63,499 bases of DNA from Halorhodospira halophila (GTDB taxonomy: Bacteria; Pseudomonadota; Gammaproteobacteria; Nitrococcales; Halorhodospiraceae): contig NZ_NHSN01000004.1 in NCBI RefSeq assembly GCF_016653405.1, positions 1 through 63,499 on the forward strand. The letters are read 5' to 3'. Shown here in pieces: positions 12,321 to 17,696 of the stretch. Under the pieces are notes generated by a model that did no database searches, was not told the origin of the DNA, and saw nothing but the letters and a program-made list of their open reading frames with translations. The stretch's first letter is position 1, and every line of letters begins with the position of its first letter. Both the position numbers and the translations under genes were made by a program.

Positions 12321-13157
12321 TCAAACGATGGCCAGCGGCCGGGGGCCGTCCGGCGGCGGGAAGAGTTCTTCGAGTTCCGTATGCTGCGCCTCGGTCAGGG
12401 TGATCTCGAGCGCGGCGCGGTTTTCGAGAACACGCTCCGGCGTTCGCGTCTTCGGGATGGCGATCACGTCGCCCTGATCCAGCAACCAGGCCAGCGCCGC
12501 CTGGGCCGCCGTGATGCCGTGACGCTCCGCAAAGCCCACGAGACGCCAGTCGTTCAGCAGCCCGCCCTGCCCGAGCGGGCAGTAAGCCATGACCGGGATG
12601 CCGCGTTGGCGCAACCACGGCAGCGTGTCCCAGTCGATACCCCGCTCGCCAAGGTGATAGAGCAGCTGATTCGCGGCGACCGCGCCCCCGCCGGGCACCC
12701 CCCAGAGTTCCTGCAGGTCAGTCGCATCGAGGTTGCTCACGCCCCAGTGGCGAATGCAGCCCGCGCGCTGCAAATCCTGGAATCCGGCCACCGCCTCCCC
12801 CAACGAGGCGCCGCCGCGCCAGTGCAGCAGGTAGAGATCGATCCGATCCGTGCCCAGACGCTCGAGACTCTGCTGACACGAGCGGACCACGCCCTTGCGG
12901 CTTGCATTCCACGGGAAGACCTTGCTGACGATGAAGGCCTGATCCCGCCGCCCGGCCAGGGCCTCGCCCACCACCCGCTCGGCACCGCCGTCGCCATACA
13001 TCTCAGCGGTATCGATCAGGGTCAGCCCGGCATCCAGCCCGGCCTGCAGCGCCGCGACCTCGGCCGCGCGCTCGCTTGGGCGCTCACCCATGCGCCAGGT
13101 CCCCTGGCCGAGGGCCGGAACCCGCTCTCCGTCGGGTAAAACGACATGGCGCTGCAT
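12321..13157 (-). CDS. Aldo/keto reductase (YeaE-like)
   Basis: NADPH-dependent oxidoreductase of the aldo/keto reductase superfamily, 278 residues, a (beta/alpha)8 barrel acting in the cytoplasm. Visible signatures are the first family motif with catalytic Asp and Tyr (DTAEMYGDGGAE), the catalytic Lys in VSKVFPWNAS, the His in YLLHWRG, the GVSNLD strand and the cofactor region AIPKTRTPERVLEN. The start at 13157 is supported by an ideal ribosome site (AAGGAGGT) three bases upstream; a longer frame starting at 13193 has none. The gene stands alone, converging on the kinase cluster, with a long empty stretch upstream. The substrate is not predictable; methylglyoxal and sugar aldehydes are common for this subgroup. 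Confidence 0.87.
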   Translation of the reverse strand: MQRHVVLPDGERVPALGQGTWRMGERPSERAAEVAALQAGLDAGLTLIDTAEMYGDGGAERVVGEALAGRRDQAFIVSKVFPWNASRKGVVRSCQQSLERLGTDRIDLYLLHWRGGASLGEAVAGFQDLQRAGCIRHWGVSNLDATDLQELWGVPGGGAVAANQLLYHLGERGIDWDTLPWLRQRGIPVMAYCPLGQGGLLNDWRLVGFAERHGITAAQAALAWLLDQGDVIAIPKTRTPERVLENRAALEITLTEAQHTELEELFPPPDGPRPLAIV

Positions 13158-13593
13158 CTCACCTCCTTGCCCCTGGGTCGGCCAGGATTCCACAGAACCT
13201 GTGGAAAACCGTGTGGAGAAAGTCAGCTGAACCCGCTTCGCGAAGGCCTTCGAGGTCTATTGGACAAAGACTGTCCAGCTACAAACCAACCACAAATCAG
13301 CACCTTGCGAACACGCCTCCAGATGTCAGCGGCTTACGCGGGGTTCTCGCATCGCCTGTGCAGAAATAACCACGCTGGTTCTGCGTCGGGCGGGAATGTC
13401 AACCCCGCATCCCTTCGAGCGGGCGAAGATTCAGTGGACGACCGGGCCAGCGCCATTCCACCAATGCGACGCGCCCTTTAACCCGTTATCCCGCAGGGTT
13501 TTGTAGTCCGTTAGGCTCTCCAGGAAAGGACTTGAGTGCACGTTCGATCTGGTGGAAATCGCCGACCTGGCAAACTGGCGACTTGAAATGCGC
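13158..13593. other. Gene-free stretch between reductase and tRNA-Ser
   Basis: Apart from the reductase ribosome site (13161-13168), no convincing gene is seen in these 436 bases. Short frames on both strands lack ribosome sites and look unlike protein. G+C is visibly lower than in neighbouring genes. The segment beside the tRNA (13579-13589, CGACTTGAAAT) is an 11-base inverted match to the tRNA anticodon arm. Confidence 0.6.
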
Positions 13594-13683
13594 TGGCGGA
13601 GAGGGAGGGATTCGAACCCCCGGAGGGCGCATGCCCTCACCCGATTTCAAGTCGGGTGCTTTCGACCGCTCAGCCACCTCTCC
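13594..13683 (-). tRNA. tRNA-Ser (anticodon UGA)
   Basis: Read on the minus strand the gene begins GGAGAGGTGGCTGAGCGGTC and ends with an encoded CCA (13594-13596). The anticodon stem-loop contains CTTGAAA, giving anticodon TGA. A long variable arm (GGGCATGCGCCC) identifies a class II tRNA, and GGTTCGAATCC is the T arm. All stems pair. It decodes UCA and, with wobble, other UCN codons. Confidence 0.96.
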
Positions 13684-13752
13684 TATGGAACAGGATGGTA
13701 GCGCACAGGCGCCACTGCGGGCCACCCGGGATACCGGCGAACGCCGCCCGGG

Positions 13753-14107
13753 TCAGTCCTCGGTACCGCCCGGCAGCGGGTATCGCATCTCAAGCGTGTT
13801 GCCCTCCGGGCGCCGCAGGTAACAGACCTGCCACATCAGGGCCTGGATGATCCGCAGCCCGCGGCCGCCCTCGTCCAGATCCACCGTGCCGCCGGACGCC
13901 TCCACCGGGGGCAAGTCCGGGCCTGTTGCCTCGCCCTCATCGTGGATCCGGACGATCAGCCAGTCGTCGTCTTGCCGGACGGTGATGCGCACGGTGTAGC
14001 CTGCTCGTTGGCCGTGGGCGTGGATGATGGCGTTGTTGACCGCCTCGCACAGGGCCTGCTCCACCGCCCCGGACGCCTCCTCACCCAAGCCCAGCTGCCG
14101 CTCGCCA
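13753..14107 (-). pseudogene. RsbW-like anti-sigma/serine kinase ATPase fragment, 5' end lost at the IS element
   Basis: The reading frame encodes the C-terminal two thirds of a GHKL ATPase of the RsbW/SpoIIAB kind: the N-box is EALCEAVNNAIIHAHG-like, followed by RIHDEG (G1 box) and GGRGLRII (G2 box). Family members normally have about 30-40 residues before the N-box; here the frame runs only about ten residues further (ERQLGLGEE) before hitting a stop at about 14116, inside the right end of the IS607 element. The only starts left are weak (TTG at 14088). The ATP site is nearly complete, but the first strand and helix are missing. Such proteins control sigma factors or STAS-domain antagonists; no partner is in the window. 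Probably non-functional. Confidence 0.7.
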
Positions 14108-14127
14108 AAACCCGATCAAACCTGTTC
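14104..14127 (-). repeat. IS607 right-end subterminal repeat
   Basis: On the minus strand this reads GAACAGGTTTGATC followed by GGGTTTTGGC and leads out into the RsbW-like fragment. It matches the order of motifs at the other end (AACAGGTT, spacer, GGTTTTGC) but with a shorter spacer. These are the likely TnpA-binding and crossover sequences; IS607 recombinases exchange strands at a GG dinucleotide, which both ends contain. Confidence 0.55.
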
Positions 14128-14300
14128 ACGGGTTCTGGCCCGGCTGCTGGCCACAGCCGCGTTTTTCCCTGGCGCTCAGGCGTCGCACGCCCAGCCCGAC
14201 CCCCGCGAGTAGATCCCGCTAGGCCGGACACGCCAGGTCCACCGCTGCCGCACGGCAGCGGGGCCTGAGCGAGGCACTGGCGGCTGAAAGCCGCCGTTGT
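14108..14300 (-). ncRNA. Candidate omega-RNA (guide scaffold) at the 3' end of tnpB
   Basis: TnpB proteins use an RNA made from the 3' end of their gene and the element's right end, with the guide read from the flanking DNA. This segment overlaps the last codons of tnpB and is rich in perfect hairpins: GGCGGCT/AGCCGCC (14279-14295), CCGCTGCCG/CGGCAGCGG (14242-14261) and a long-range pair CCTGGCG/CGCCAGG (14168-14174 with 14231-14237). The RNA would end at the right end, placing the guide in the RsbW-like fragment (about 14090-14107). Inferred from the family; boundaries are approximate. Confidence 0.5.
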
Positions 14301-15564
14301 TTTGCTTCTGTTCCCGCAGGAACACGGCCCATCCATTGCGCGCGGCGTTCTCGTCGCGCAGGTGATGGGCACCGCAGCACGGACAATCCCACTCGTCCAC
14401 GCCGGGGGCGATGCCTCCCTCGACGGCGTGTCCACACTCGGAGCAAGTCCGTGTCGTCCGGTGTTCTTGGAACACCGAAAACTGCTTGCCCGATTTGAGC
14501 GCCGTCCAGGAGAGGGTGTCCTTGAACTGCCCGATGACCGAGCGATTACTCATCGCCCGGCGCATGGCGGTGGTGATGCCGTTGCCCTTCGGGGTGTAGT
14601 CGCCAATCACCACCCAGTCGTAGTGGCGATACAGCCGGTTGGCGACGGTGGCGAGGTACGTCTTGCTCTGCTCTCGACGTTTCGCCAGCACCCGCTGGAG
14701 GGCCTTATCATAGCGCATCCATCGCTTCGATGGCCGCCAGTAGTGGCGGCCTGTCTCCTGAGCGTCGGCGTCGAGCACCGGCACGCGCACCGAGTGCTTG
14801 CAGCATCGGTCACGTTTGGCCTGGAGCTCATCGGCTCGCCGATCCAGGATCTTGAGCCACCACGGCGTCTCGATGGAGACAGCGTTGCCTTCCGAATCGA
14901 CGCCGTAAGCGAGGTTCTTGTGGTTCGGATCGAGGACGATCGCGTGGTTGATTTCCTTCGGCTTGGGAACAGGGCGATCAACCCCGAAGACGGCGTAGAA
15001 CACGCCCTGCTGCTTGACGATGCGGAGGTTGTTGACCGTTTTGCCCTTGAGGGCTTTCTGCACACCCGGAGCCCGAACGACGACATAGCGTTGTTGGTTG
15101 TTCCGATCCTTGCCCAGCGAGAGCGTGAGCTGCTCGCCGTGGATCCTGAAGCCCTTGTTCGGCTCGTCGTAGAGCAGCGAAAACCACCCACTATGCCGCC
15201 AGGATCGAAACCGGGGCCAGCCCACAGGGCCGCCCTTGCGGCGGCCGTGCCGTGCGTCCTGGTGGCGCCGGATGCTGTCGGAGACGCGCAGCGCGGCGTT
15301 TTTCAAAGGTGAGGAGTGTACGACCTTGATAAAGGGGTTTTCCTCCTTGATCTGCGGAAGGAGGTTCCGCAATCCGCGTTTGCTGTAGAGCAGCCCACCG
15401 ATCTCGGGGTCTTGCGTGTGTCGATATTGCGCGCGCAGGTTGTTGGCGCGCTCGAGCAGGTGGTTATAGAGCCAGTTGCAGATCCGCGACTGGCCGTCGA
15501 GTTGCGCAGCCACATCGCCCTCGACCTCCAGCCGGATCTTGGTAGCAGCCTCAGCCATGCTCAT
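14176..15564 (-). CDS. tnpB: TnpB, RNA-guided nuclease of IS607, with altered RuvC-II site
   Basis: 462-residue TnpB from ATG 15564, which overlaps the end of tnpA (ATGAGCATGGCTGA). The N-terminal helical/REC-like region spans 1-200. RuvC-I aspartate is D212 in IVLDPNHKN, and the RuvC-III aspartate is D404 in HLRDENAARN. The zinc finger is CSECG (C374, C377) and CPCC (from C394). At the usual RuvC-II position (IED or IENL in typical TnpB) the sequence is VVIGDYTPKG, so the conserved Glu is Gly321, followed by Asp322. A glutamate, E367 (FQEHRTTRTC), lies about 45 residues on, just before the zinc finger, where a subset of TnpB and the eukaryotic Fanzor proteins are reported to carry a relocated catalytic Glu. 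Likely an intact nuclease. Confidence 0.88.
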   Translation of the reverse strand: MSMAEAATKIRLEVEGDVAAQLDGQSRICNWLYNHLLERANNLRAQYRHTQDPEIGGLLYSKRGLRNLLPQIKEENPFIKVVHSSPLKNAALRVSDSIRRHQDARHGRRKGGPVGWPRFRSWRHSGWFSLLYDEPNKGFRIHGEQLTLSLGKDRNNQQRYVVVRAPGVQKALKGKTVNNLRIVKQQGVFYAVFGVDRPVPKPKEINHAIVLDPNHKNLAYGVDSEGNAVSIETPWWLKILDRRADELQAKRDRCCKHSVRVPVLDADAQETGRHYWRPSKRWMRYDKALQRVLAKRREQSKTYLATVANRLYRHYDWVVIGDYTPKGNGITTAMRRAMSNRSVIGQFKDTLSWTALKSGKQFSVFQEHRTTRTCSECGHAVEGGIAPGVDEWDCPCCGAHHLRDENAARNGWAVFLREQKQNNGGFQPPVPRSGPAAVRQRWTWRVRPSGIYSRGSGWACDA

Positions 15565-16186
15565 TGTCCGCCGCCGCAACGCTCTTCTGGAGGCCCTCGA
15601 TGATCGCCCGGTTCTTGCGCGAGCGCGCACCGTAGAGCCGGGCGCTGAACACCGTGATGATTTCAAGGACATCCTGGGCGAGTTCTTCCTCGAAGGACGC
15701 CTCTTCGTTCTGGTTGATGATGACCACCTCGACGTTGCGCATCTCGCAGACCGCGAAGATTAGCTCGCTGCCAAAGCGGAGAAGCCGATCCTTGTGGGTG
15801 AGCACGAGGCGATCCACCTTGCCGTCGATCAGCCGCGACAGCAGCCCGCGCAGCCCCTTTTTGCGGTCGTTCATCCCGGAGCCGAGATCGGCGATGACCT
15901 CGAACGTCCATCCGCGCGCCCCGCAGAAGTCCGTGAGCAGTTGCTTCTGGCGCTCTAGGTCCGAGCGCTGATCCGAGCTGGAGACACGGGCGTAGGCAAC
16001 GGTGACGGCGTCTTCGGTGCGCTCGGCGTGCGACTTGCCAGCCAAACGACTCAAACGTGCTTCGTCGTAACGCCGCTGGCCGCCCTTGGTGTGGCTGTCT
16101 GGCAGAAGCCGCCCCTCTTTCTCCCAGCGATAGAGCGTGGGAACGGAGACGCCGAGGATCTTGGCGGCTTTGCTGATAGGCACCAT
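15551..16186 (-). CDS. tnpA: IS607 TnpA: MerR-type HTH plus serine recombinase
   Basis: 211-residue serine recombinase that excises and inserts the element. Residues 3-45 are a MerR-like helix-turn-helix (SKAAKILGVSVPTLYRWEKE) placed N-terminal to the catalytic domain, the reverse of classical resolvases and diagnostic for IS607. The catalytic serine is S69 in AYARVSSSDQ. Conserved resolvase residues follow (DLERQ, LGSGMNDRKKGL, LTHKDRLLRFG). The ATG at 16186 is preceded by AGGTT. The gene is full length and looks intact. Its stop overlaps the start of tnpB, so the two are coupled. Confidence 0.92.
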   Translation of the reverse strand: MVPISKAAKILGVSVPTLYRWEKEGRLLPDSHTKGGQRRYDEARLSRLAGKSHAERTEDAVTVAYARVSSSDQRSDLERQKQLLTDFCGARGWTFEVIADLGSGMNDRKKGLRGLLSRLIDGKVDRLVLTHKDRLLRFGSELIFAVCEMRNVEVVIINQNEEASFEEELAQDVLEIITVFSARLYGARSRKNRAIIEGLQKSVAAADNEHG

Positions 16187-16211
16187 AACCTAATTATGGC
16201 ATATCGCATTA

Positions 16212-16244
16212 AACAGGTTCAATAGGCTATAATAGAGGTTTTGC
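16212..16244 (+). repeat. IS607 left-end subterminal repeat
   Basis: AACAGGTT at 16212-16219 and GGTTTTGC at 16237-16244, reading outward from the element, mirror the right end (AACAGGTT, GGGTTTTGGC). The spacer here is longer and AT-rich and contains TATAAT. It probably holds the recombinase binding and crossover site. Confidence 0.55.
16228..16233 (+). promoter_or_regulatory. Outward-facing -10-like box in the IS607 left end
   Basis: A perfect TATAAT on the plus strand, 18 bases before the TTG that opens the truncated TPR gene. The -35 region at the right distance (around 16205-16210) is poor. If active it would drive the TPR-PilZ pair from inside the insertion sequence. Confidence 0.3.
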
Positions 16245-16250
16245 GATCAG

Positions 16251-17696
16251 TTGAAAGCCCCGCAGGACCCAACACTGGTCTACGACACAGCGCAACTCCT
16301 GCATTGGATGGGGGATGACGCGACCGCCGCGGGCCTTCTGACCTCCCTCCCGGCGGGCGCGGAGCGCACGCGAGCGAGCCTCCTGCTGCAGGCCCGGGTG
16401 GAGCTCGCACTCGGGCGCAGCGGCCGGGCCCGGGTCCTGCTGGGGGCCCTCCGTCCCCTCCGGGGCCGCCCCGAACACCTGCTCTACGTCGCCACGCTGA
16501 CCGCCTCCGGGGTGCTCCACGGCGCGGAAAACGCCGTGCGCGGGCTCCTCGACGAGACCCCCGGGGACCAGGAACTGCGGCGCCAGCTCGGTGACATCCT
16601 TCAGGCCCAGGGCCGGCCTTACGCCGCTGAGCACCACTACGCCCGCATCCTGGAGGCAGATCCCGGGAATGCCCGGGCATCGGCACGCCTCGAAGGGCTG
16701 GCCCACCGGGCGACACCCGGGCCGGCCGACGACCCGGAGCCGGAACCCCTGACTGCAGAGCCGCCGGCGGACCCGCGCAGCGGCCGGGATTACCTCAAGG
16801 TCGCTGAACACGCCGCGGCCCGCGGCGAACGCGAGGCCGCCGAGGCAGCCGCGCGCCGGGCCCTGAGGCTGGAGCCGGAACTGACCCGGGCGGGCTACCT
16901 GCTCGCCGATCAGCTCATCGCCCGCGGCGCCCTGGCCGAGGCCGAGGACCCCCTGGCCACCATCCTGCAGCGCTTCCCCGATACCACCCAGGCCGGCCTG
17001 ACCCGGGCCCGGCTGGCGTCCTGGCAGGGCGACTACGAGCGCGCCCTGGAACTCTACGACACCCTCGCCGAGGCCAACCCGACGGATCCGACCTTCGCCG
17101 TAGAGGCCGCGCGCGTGGCGGGCTGGGCCGGGGATCGAAAGCAGTCCAAGGAGCGCTACGCCGCCTTGCTGAACCAACTACATAGCACCGCGGACGCCGA
17201 GGACGAGGCCTCGGCCCGTCCCGTGCTGATTACGCCCGCGCCCGAGAAGGCGCCGCTGCCAGCACCGGCCCACCCGGACTATCCGGCCCTCGCCGAGCAC
17301 CGGGCCGTCCACCAGGAGGCCCACGCCAAGGCCCTGGTCCAGGACCGCCAGCCGCGGGCCGCCCTCGCCGTCCTCCAGCGTGCCGCACGCTTCCAGCCCC
17401 ACAACCTGGAGACCGCCTTCGATCAGTCCGAGATCGAGTGCACCCTCGGCCTATGTGACGCCGAACGGGCCACCTACCGGCGCGTGCTCGAGATGGCACC
17501 GGGGCACGCCCAGGCCGGGCAGCGCCTGGCGCACCTGGAGCGCCGGCGCGGCCCGCACGCCGGCGTCCACGCCGAGTACCGGAAGGAGGAGGACTGGCGG
17601 CTCGATGCCGGGGTGCCATCCGAGGCCCTGGACCCGCTACGACGGATGCGCAGCGAGCCCGCCGCCCTGTTGGAGGGACGATCCCATGGTGACTGA
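16251..17696 (+). CDS. TPR-repeat protein, probably 5'-truncated by the IS element
   Basis: 481 residues of tandem tetratricopeptide-like helix pairs (for example GDILQAQGRPYAAEHHYARI and DQLIARGALAEAEDPLATIL). The first residues (YDTAQLLHWMGDDATAAGLL) and overall pattern resemble the superhelical part of exopolysaccharide export proteins of the PgaA/PelB kind, though this is only a resemblance. There is no signal peptide: the frame starts at a poor TTG, with a stop at 16233 inside the insertion sequence, so the original N-terminus is missing. The end overlaps the PilZ gene by 11 bases, which links the protein to c-di-GMP-controlled functions. Confidence 0.7.
   Translation: MKAPQDPTLVYDTAQLLHWMGDDATAAGLLTSLPAGAERTRASLLLQARVELALGRSGRARVLLGALRPLRGRPEHLLYVATLTASGVLHGAENAVRGLLDETPGDQELRRQLGDILQAQGRPYAAEHHYARILEADPGNARASARLEGLAHRATPGPADDPEPEPLTAEPPADPRSGRDYLKVAEHAAARGEREAAEAAARRALRLEPELTRAGYLLADQLIARGALAEAEDPLATILQRFPDTTQAGLTRARLASWQGDYERALELYDTLAEANPTDPTFAVEAARVAGWAGDRKQSKERYAALLNQLHSTADAEDEASARPVLITPAPEKAPLPAPAHPDYPALAEHRAVHQEAHAKALVQDRQPRAALAVLQRAARFQPHNLETAFDQSEIECTLGLCDAERATYRRVLEMAPGHAQAGQRLAHLERRRGPHAGVHAEYRKEEDWRLDAGVPSEALDPLRRMRSEPAALLEGRSHGD

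What the first reader, a model, noticed from the sequence alone, without database searches (positions are those of the whole stretch)
14176..15564. IS607 TnpB with a relocated RuvC-II glutamate, as in Fanzor-related TnpB
Seen: the usual catalytic Glu position reads VVIGDYTPKG (G321-D322), while D212 (VLDPNHKN), D404 (RDENAARN) and the zinc finger are intact. A glutamate (E367, FQEHRTTRTC) lies about 45 residues on, just before the first zinc Cys. Known: eukaryotic Fanzor proteins and a subset of TnpB are reported to have lost the canonical Glu and use one elsewhere. This would place the protein in that group, close to the ancestry of Fanzor, in an otherwise intact element.
Basis: partly seen in the sequence, partly recalled or inferred. 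Interest (0 to 1): 0.62.

Follow-up and report, generated by a model that had tools for sequence, protein, structure and literature searches.

The report
Bacterial nuclease with moved catalytic glutamate
A bacterial jumping gene carries an RNA-guided DNA cutter whose key catalytic residue sits in a different place, as in the eukaryotic Fanzor enzymes, and it belongs to a scattered family with its own signature (DPN) that the published Fanzor-style search patterns mostly do not fit.

Summary
D212, G321, D322, E367 and D404 are as described; E367 lies six residues before the first zinc Cys, the published 'Ealt' position. In 68 aligned TnpBs each has Glu at 321 or 367, none both. The window belongs to a family of 40 loci; the 34 that are intact at this place all have the Glu. 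D322 is not needed: it is N in 14 Cupriavidus copies. The element is complete at 14098-16261: IS607 TnpA, TnpB and a guide-RNA scaffold with a pseudoknot, supported by family covariation. The Fanzor claim is partly right. RuvC-I reads DPN, not DPG, and the TnpA groups with TnpAs of canonical-Glu elements. RuvC trees without catalytic columns put DPN next to pro-Fanzors plus Mimivirus Fanzor2 (96/88), but raw profile similarity favours canonical IS607 TnpB. Best reading: an active Ealt TnpB, a DPN variant of a known kind, spread by horizontal transfer. The E367 to D212/D404 distance was not measured, and nothing was assayed.

The parts
14098..16261 (-). IS607-family element, 2164 bp including GG at both ends; minus strand reads GGGGCTTTCAAC...TTTTGGCGAGCGG
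   Evidence: Ends by homology with 14 C. necator A5-1 copies (most start GGGGCAAG and stop at GAGCGG, with different flanks; L060 aligns only from 29 bp inside the left end). Homology of the window flanks to congener G006 stops at 14098 and starts at 16260.
16187..16261 (-). left end (LE), non-coding
   Evidence: a 15-nt inverted repeat shared with the right end (16212-16226 with 14112-14126, 80%; one of 34 inverted pairs listed there, so weak alone)
15551..16186 (-). tnpA, IS607 serine recombinase, 211 aa (MerR-type HTH plus resolvase domain), intact frame
   Evidence: NF033518 transpos_IS607 215.9 bits, cut-off 110; Pfam Resolvase and MerR
14176..15564 (-). tnpB, 462 aa, RNA-guided nuclease with alternative RuvC-II glutamate; start overlaps the end of tnpA by 14 nt
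   Evidence: NF040570 135.4 bits; family alignments; model pLDDT 86.9, pTM 0.69
14929..14931 (-). D212, RuvC-I aspartate, in the DPNxKN motif
   Evidence: invariant in A5, 14 sequences
14923..14925 (-). N214, third residue of DPN; candidate extra metal ligand (inferred)
   Evidence: invariant in A5; SpuFz1 N385 at D383+2 is a Mg ligand (PMC10432273 passage)
14602..14604 (-). G321, at the canonical RuvC-II Glu position
   Evidence: G in all 18 DPN rows
14599..14601 (-). D322, not strictly conserved (N in C. necator A5-1)
14464..14466 (-). E367, alternative RuvC-II glutamate, six residues before C374
   Evidence: directly after strand 361-366 in the model
14353..14355 (-). D404, RuvC-III aspartate (RDEN)
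   Evidence: invariant in A5; in helix 403-422 of the model
14098..14278 (-). right-end guide RNA (reRNA/omegaRNA) scaffold, overlapping the 3' end of tnpB
   Evidence: 88.6% of cells paired, 15 of 21 pairs with two-sided changes over 13 sequences; RNAalifold; fold z -4.1, 1 of 200 shuffles as low. The window itself forms 15 of the 21 pairs in this register.
14267..14270 (-). pseudoknot, 5' side: hairpin loop GCUC
   Evidence: helix 2; the window's own minimum-energy fold pairs CGCUC with the 3' GAGCG
14100..14103 (-). pseudoknot, 3' side: GAGC just before the terminal GG
   Evidence: helix 2 (96.2% of cells paired; A-U in L063, U-A in L039)
14078..14097 (-). predicted 20-nt guide, host sequence after the right end
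   Evidence: inferred from the element end and from what is reported for ISXfa1 (PMC10711439); not shown for this element

Best explanation
This is a complete IS607-family insertion sequence. Its TnpB is an active RNA-guided DNA endonuclease that uses E367, not a glutamate at position 321, as the RuvC-II metal ligand together with D212 and D404 (the Fanzor-type 'Ealt' active site). TnpA moves the element by recombination at GG dinucleotides. A transcript from the 3' end of tnpB folds into a pseudoknotted scaffold ending at the element's right end and takes the adjoining host DNA as guide. The TnpB-RNA complex would cut sites that have lost the element (G-rich motif plus guide match), so that repair restores it. 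Shown here: the residues, their conservation, the element ends, the RNA covariation and the selection on tnpB. Inferred: cutting, metal binding by E367, the cleavage motif, the guide and the benefit to the element.
For: E at 367 or 321, never both, in 68 of 68 aligned TnpBs. E367 in all 34 family members intact there. D322 replaced by N in 14 copies. The same ExxxxxxCxxC feature in Mimivirus Fanzor2 9b0l and in cyanobacterial DPG TnpBs. In the model E367 follows strand 361-366 just before the zinc region and D404 opens helix 403-422, the layout that PMC11423790 gives for Fz (passage). dN/dS 0.08 and 0.16 for the two pairs with low dS, of 8 tested. reRNA with pseudoknot. Element ends.
Against: No activity assay. 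The E367 to D212/D404 distance was not measured, because the model comes without coordinates. One copy in this genome, so no sign of recent movement here. Among 12 C. necator A5-1 copies the nonsynonymous/synonymous ratio is 0.63, so recent constraint there is weak. L067 has lost the region. The window sequence breaks 4 of 7 pairs of helix 3 and 2 of 6 of helix 4 in the family register. About 3 kb of host DNA is missing beside the element, so the insertion site is not a clean empty site.
Confidence: 0.85

Rival explanations
1. D322, next to the lost Glu, has taken over as the RuvC-II acid and E367 is incidental.
For: D322 is D in 17 of the 18 DPN rows (L048 has N), and nearly invariant in A5.
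Against: It is N in all 14 C. necator A5-1 copies found, 13 of them with tnpB in one frame; two of nine DxG_Ealt rows also have N there. E367 does not vary in intact members.
Confidence: 0.05
2. TnpB is nuclease-dead and acts as an RNA-guided binding protein or repressor, like TldR.
For: The canonical Glu is missing; no activity data for this family were found.
Against: A full D-E-D set is conserved at the Ealt layout known to be active in Fanzors; all 34 intact members keep E367; the gene sits in a complete mobile element, not a domesticated locus.
Confidence: 0.06
3. The Glu moved independently inside canonical IS607 TnpB elements that share the window's TnpA, so the likeness to Fanzor is convergent.
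For: TnpA groups with TnpAs of canonical-Glu elements (L193 63% identical). Profile score with canonical IS607-type TnpB is highest (273 against 219 for pro-Fanzor and 164 for DxG). In the tree the Glu position needs 2 changes.
Against: RuvC trees without the catalytic columns put DPN with DPG (96/88). A clade of DPN with seven canonical TnpBs, six of which have an IS607 TnpA in the locus, is rejected (AU p 0.029; with four of them p 0.0036; groups chosen after the TnpA tree). One clade of all Ealt is not rejected (p 0.372).
Confidence: 0.3

Closest known systems
pro-Fanzors (cyanobacterial IS607 TnpB with DPG and Ealt; Yoon et al. 2023, PMC10711439)
   Same: Alternative Glu six residues before the first zinc Cys; no Glu at the canonical place; IS607 element; next clade in the RuvC tree.
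   Different: DPN instead of DPG; G instead of P at the old Glu position; window 462 aa against open frames of 506-598 aa; TnpA from another branch; hosts include Pseudomonadota, Chlamydiota, Chloroflexota, Bacillota and an archaeal MAG, and no cyanobacterium among the 39 relatives.
Fanzor2, Mimivirus L79 (PDB 9b0l)
   Same: Ealt Glu in NEYLTTKTC; G at the canonical position, as in the window; same fold, Z 21.0.
   Different: DPG; 14-16% identity in the structural alignments; viral/eukaryotic; its place in the tree is unsure.
DxG Ealt TnpB of Gamma/Betaproteobacteria (e.g. L012, L190)
   Same: Ealt Glu, and G-D or G-N at the old Glu position.
   Different: DLG; separate clade (100/100); of the four plasmid loci with annotation, one (L190) lies beside an IS200/IS605 TnpA and none beside an IS607 TnpA.
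ISXfa1 and other IS607 TnpB with studied reRNA (PMC10711439; RAGATH-18 IS607 TnpB, PMC11061315)
   Same: IS607, G-rich motif, reRNA with an essential pseudoknot.
   Different: ISFba1 TnpB uses D194/E290/D371 (passage), 81 residues between E and D, so canonical spacing; no RAGATH-18 match in the window at E up to 1. The Glu type of ISXfa1 was not checked.
SpuFz1, a eukaryotic Fanzor1
   Same: Metal ligands D383, N385, E541, D606 (PMC10432273 passage): a D-x-N like D212-P-N214, and D-to-E spacing 158 against 155 here.
   Different: Distant fold match (8gkh Z 11.5); not listed in the PDB sequence searches.

Membership tests
TnpB / OMEGA RNA-guided nuclease | NCBIfam guided_TnpB above cut-off | tested here: met
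   135.4 bits against 100
TnpB / OMEGA RNA-guided nuclease | structured guide RNA at the right end of the element | tested here: met
   family covariation; the window forms 15 of 21 pairs in that register. Match to R1 94.3 bits, but the window is one of its 13 building sequences.
TnpB / OMEGA RNA-guided nuclease | RNA-guided DNA cleavage | not testable with these tools
   needs an assay
IS607 element | IS607 TnpA serine recombinase | tested here: met
   NF033518 215.9 bits against 110
IS607 element | GG at both ends, flanks without target duplication | tested here: inconclusive
   GG at both ends; flanks cannot be compared for duplication because about 3 kb of host DNA is missing
Ealt TnpB/Fanzor group | E six residues before first CxxC and no Glu at the canonical place | tested here: met
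   definition from PMC10711439
Fanzor / pro-Fanzor | DPG motif in RuvC-I | tested here: not met
   DPN in all 18 DPN rows, window included; 0 of 31 members fit the published DPG pattern
Fanzor / pro-Fanzor | TnpA related to Fanzor2/pro-Fanzor TnpA | tested here: not met
   100/100 branch between them (11 pro-Fanzor TnpAs only, no Fanzor2 TnpA at hand)
Fanzor / pro-Fanzor | inside the DPG clade of the RuvC tree | tested here: not met
   DPG is its own group (99/96); DPN lies next to it
DxG Ealt TnpB | DxG motif and clade | tested here: not met
   DPN; separate groups, though one joint clade is not rejected (p 0.178)
RAGATH-18 IS607 TnpB | RAGATH-18 RNA beside tnpB | tested here: not met
   no match at E up to 1 in 13000-17000
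TldR (nuclease-dead TnpB) | loss of RuvC catalytic acids | tested here: not met
   D212, E367, D404 all conserved; TldR definition recalled

The most novel reading that the evidence does not exclude
The DPN family is a third, undescribed lineage of alternative-glutamate TnpB and the nearest non-cyanobacterial relative of the Fanzor branch. Its D-P-N motif supplies a fourth metal ligand (N214), as N385 does in SpuFz1. The relocated Glu therefore arose before the DPG signature, in an IS607 lineage that later exchanged its TnpA and spread through Chlamydiota, Bacillota, Pseudomonadota, Chloroflexota and archaea.
Probability: 0.3. Interest if true: 0.66.

Novelty: new variant of a known kind. Interest (0 to 1): 0.5.

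Why it matters
Published searches for Fanzor-like bacterial proteins required D-x-G in RuvC-I (PMC10711439, section 10). Run on 31 family members here, the DPG pattern fits none and the other pattern fits 3 (L069, L070, L075, through a D-x-G other than the DPN motif); the window fits neither. The DPN family adds a small Ealt lineage with mapped ends, guide-RNA scaffold and natural multi-copy elements (14 copies found in C. necator A5-1). This makes two open questions testable: whether the glutamate moved once or several times, and whether the moved site reduces collateral ssDNA cutting, as suggested for Fanzors (PMC10711439, passage). It also bears on the claim that pro-Fanzors are exclusively cyanobacterial.

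Tried and rejected
D322 as substitute acid: rejected, N in 14 copies. Nuclease-dead reading: no support. RAGATH-18 RNA: no match. Finding more members near the host: beyond the window's own, the best score was 46 bits in 40 relatives and 52.1 bits in 274 class genomes, and 398 phylum genomes had none at E up to 1e-12. Fanzor relatives from viral contigs: A1 gave one 17-residue hit, the L79 fragment gave one canonical TnpB, the pro-Fanzor gave none. Plasmid searches with two of the A5-1 left flanks for empty sites gave only diverged relatives, not followed; the cleavage motif was therefore not derived. Measuring the E367 to D212/D404 distance: no coordinates are laid in the Python box. Reading the D-x-N of SpuFz1 from a PDB sequence search: SpuFz1 was not listed.

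Dropped or limited rows: 18 of the 40 family loci went into the trees; most others are near-copies, broken or cut. L156-L159 were left out of the alignment and tree because my script asked for CxxC; they are DPG with the Ealt Glu but with TSKTVSWT in place of the Cys. L009 and L011 (very long branch) are and out. In the realigned variant the catalytic columns were kept; there all Ealt form one clade at 86. With Mimivirus L79 as the only DPG row, DPN+DPG was not recovered. Thirteen members went into the RNA alignment; L068 was left out because its hairpin did not fit the pattern, and L069-L071 and L074-L076 were not put in. In one search one of five measures (further pair types) was reached by 25 of 500 shuffles; the other four by none. 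Helix 3 pairs poorly in L039 and L048 (1 of 7) and in the window (3 of 7) in the register used; by eye the window can pair 6 bases in a shifted register. In one search the RNA model also matched 3 of 30 non-family sources: L213 (27.9 bits) and L136 (23.2), both canonical-Glu IS607 elements, and part of pro-Fanzor L150 (17.4). So the RNA is not unique to DPN elements.

No paper on a DPN-type Ealt TnpB was found in the searches. Jiang et al. 2023 and Altae-Tran et al. 2023 (recalled) were not read and may cover such proteins.

Full report
1. The observation. The reading frame is on the minus strand of 14176-15564. It encodes a 462-residue TnpB (NF040570, 135.4 bits). E367 is followed by exactly six residues and then the first zinc Cys. 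Yoon et al. (PMC10711439; passages and sections 10, 23 and 26 read) define the Fanzor-type 'Ealt' by this spacing and place the canonical Glu about 50 residues upstream of the zinc finger.

2. Is it more than chance? One scan of GTDB genome contigs with a two-sequence alignment gave 76 loci. By phmmer score the relatives split into a close family (39 loci above 85 bits, two of them from a plasmid) and distant TnpBs below 60 bits. With the window the family has 40 loci. Thirty-four are intact at position 367 and all 34 have E there. L067 loses its match at about residue 360 and ends ten residues on (Q at the aligned place), and five end before it. The members shown have DPNxKN and G at 321 wherever they reach these places. 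The next residue is D in the others but N in the 14 copies found in C. necator A5-1, so D322 cannot be a required acid. In an alignment of 68 TnpBs of four kinds, each has Glu at 321 or at 367 and none has both: 37 at 367 (18 DPN, 10 DPG, 9 DxG) and 31 at 321. Most DPG and DxG rows had been picked by a pattern that asks for the Ealt Glu, but nothing was asked of position 321. Of 8 pairs tested for dN/dS, two with low dS give 0.08 and 0.16, two with high dS (1.6 and 2.4) give 0.14 and 0.09, and four are saturated. Twelve A5-1 copies compared with their consensus give 34 nonsynonymous and 17 synonymous changes and no stop (ratio 0.63).

3. The element. The A5-1 copies share about 2234 bp, most beginning GGGGCAAG and ending GAGCGG, with unrelated flanks (L060 aligns only from 29 bp inside the left end). 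The window has GGGGCTTTCAAC (minus strand, from 16261) and TTTTGGCGAGCGG (to 14098). Independent support: homology of the host flanks to congener G006 stops at window 14098 and starts at 16260. The element is thus 2164 bp with an intact IS607 TnpA. IS607 is known to exchange at GG without target duplication (PMC6188088, passages). The genome search found one copy.

4. The guide RNA. The 3' end of tnpB and the following right end were aligned for 13 family members. RNAalifold found three helices, 13 of 17 pairs with two-sided changes. I added a pseudoknot between the GCUC loop of the first hairpin and the GAGC just before the terminal GG. For the whole structure 88.6% of cells pair; shuffles average 72.6% and slid versions 30-49%. 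Fifteen of 21 pairs have two-sided changes; four of the five measures exceed all 500 shuffles, the fifth (further pair types) is reached by 25. The pseudoknot varies little but in step: GCAC with GUGC in L063, GCUU with AAGC in L039; it is broken at one pair in L045 and L046. The window forms the first hairpin and the pseudoknot in full, but only 3 of 7 pairs of helix 3 and 4 of 6 of helix 4 in the family register. Folded alone, the window's strand pairs CGCUC with the 3' GAGCG, which is the pseudoknot pairing, in place of the first hairpin. In ISXfa1 a loop pseudoknot is essential for activity (PMC10711439, section 26). In L069, L070 and L074 (Bacilli) the hairpin motif lies after the stop codon, elsewhere it overlaps the end of tnpB, so it is not conserved merely as protein.

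5. The active site. The AlphaFold2 model (28 sequences, mean pLDDT 86.9) places D212 at the end of strand 208-213, E367 directly after strand 361-366, and D404 at the start of helix 403-422. PMC11423790 (passage) describes the Fz site as D on the second strand, E on the loop between the fifth strand and the TNB domain, and D on the helix; the order here is the same. SpuFz1 binds two Mg ions with E541, D383, N385 and D606 (PMC10432273 passage). N385 is two residues after D383, as N214 is after D212. That N214 binds metal is my inference. Distances could not be measured.

6. Kinship. With the catalytic columns left out, the DPN family is one group (100/100), DPG pro-Fanzors plus Mimivirus L79 are one (99/96), DxG Ealt is one (100/100), and DPN+DPG stand together at 96/88 (66 rows, 212 columns, unrooted). 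Four of five variants recover DPN+DPG (96, 94, 75, 93; the last kept the catalytic columns); with L79 alone standing for DPG it is not recovered. One clade of all Ealt is not rejected (p 0.372), nor is DPN+DxG (0.178); DPG+DxG is weakly rejected (0.036). Against close Fanzor kinship: profile comparison scores DPN highest with canonical IS607-type TnpB (273), then DPG (219), then DxG (164) (alignments of 9-14 sequences, so rates and depth matter). The fold is nearest ISDra2 TnpB (Z 27.5), with Fanzor2 at Z 21.0 and SpuFz1 at 11.5. The TnpA mixes with TnpAs of canonical-Glu elements, far from pro-Fanzor TnpAs (100/100 branch). A clade of DPN TnpB with canonical TnpBs of that kind is rejected (p 0.029 and 0.0036; groups chosen). 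The simplest account is that TnpA and TnpB have different histories, with an exchange of TnpA.

7. Membership and novelty. It is a TnpB, an IS607 element and an Ealt enzyme by tests made here. It is not a pro-Fanzor: DPG is not met, the group in the tree is not met, and the TnpA is not met. The published patterns demand D-x-G (section 10); of 31 family members they fit 0 (DPG) and 3 (other D-x-G), and not the window. In the literature searches made I found no description of a DPN group, but two key papers (Jiang 2023, Altae-Tran 2023; recalled) were not available. I therefore call it a new variant of a known kind.

8. Distribution. Family members come from Chlamydiota, Chloroflexota, delta- and epsilonproteobacterial MAGs, Cupriavidus, Clostridia, Bacilli and a Methanohalobium MAG. 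The scan used two short peptide patterns, so this is a lower bound. The nearest row is a Waddliaceae MAG. Eleven of the 39 relatives, mostly Bacilli and the archaeal MAG, have no IS607 TnpA in the stretch held (L062, L063, L067-L071, L073-L076). Placement of several rests on MAG contigs.

Noticed in passing
window 14088-14098 and 16260-16262: Host DNA of about 3 kb is missing at the insertion. In congener G006 the two flanking points are about 3.0 kb apart and enclose the start of an RsbW-like ATPase gene, a STAS-like gene, a response-regulator/PP2C-like phosphatase gene and TPR genes (names by eye from the translations); by the match coordinates G007 and G008 have somewhat larger spacing. The element therefore sits on a deletion that removes what looks like an anti-sigma switch.
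   Followed up: partly
window 15551-16186: TnpA is closest to TnpAs of canonical-Glu IS607 elements (63% identity to L193) while TnpB is not: a TnpA/TnpB exchange.
   Followed up: yes
L009, L011 (same genus as the window's genome): A 555-557 aa TnpB with E at the canonical place and EVNAAYSSQTC at the zinc finger, on a very long branch (2.54).
   Followed up: no
L156-L159, L161, L165, L166, L171, L174, L176, L177: Cyanobacterial DPG Ealt TnpBs that keep the Ealt Glu but have TSKTVSWT where the first zinc Cys pair should be: the zinc finger appears lost. L167 looks the same but its DPG part is not in the frame shown.
   Followed up: no
L067 4401-4592: A Clostridiaceae family member with tnpB broken off just before E367 but a scaffold match at 42 bits.
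   Followed up: no
L045 and L046: Closely related TnpBs in a deltaproteobacterial and an epsilonproteobacterial MAG (2.7% nonsynonymous, 28% synonymous difference): transfer between classes or a binning error.
   Followed up: no
window 13597-13683: A tRNA gene (minus strand, Rfam 62 bits) lies about 400 bp from the element.
   Followed up: no
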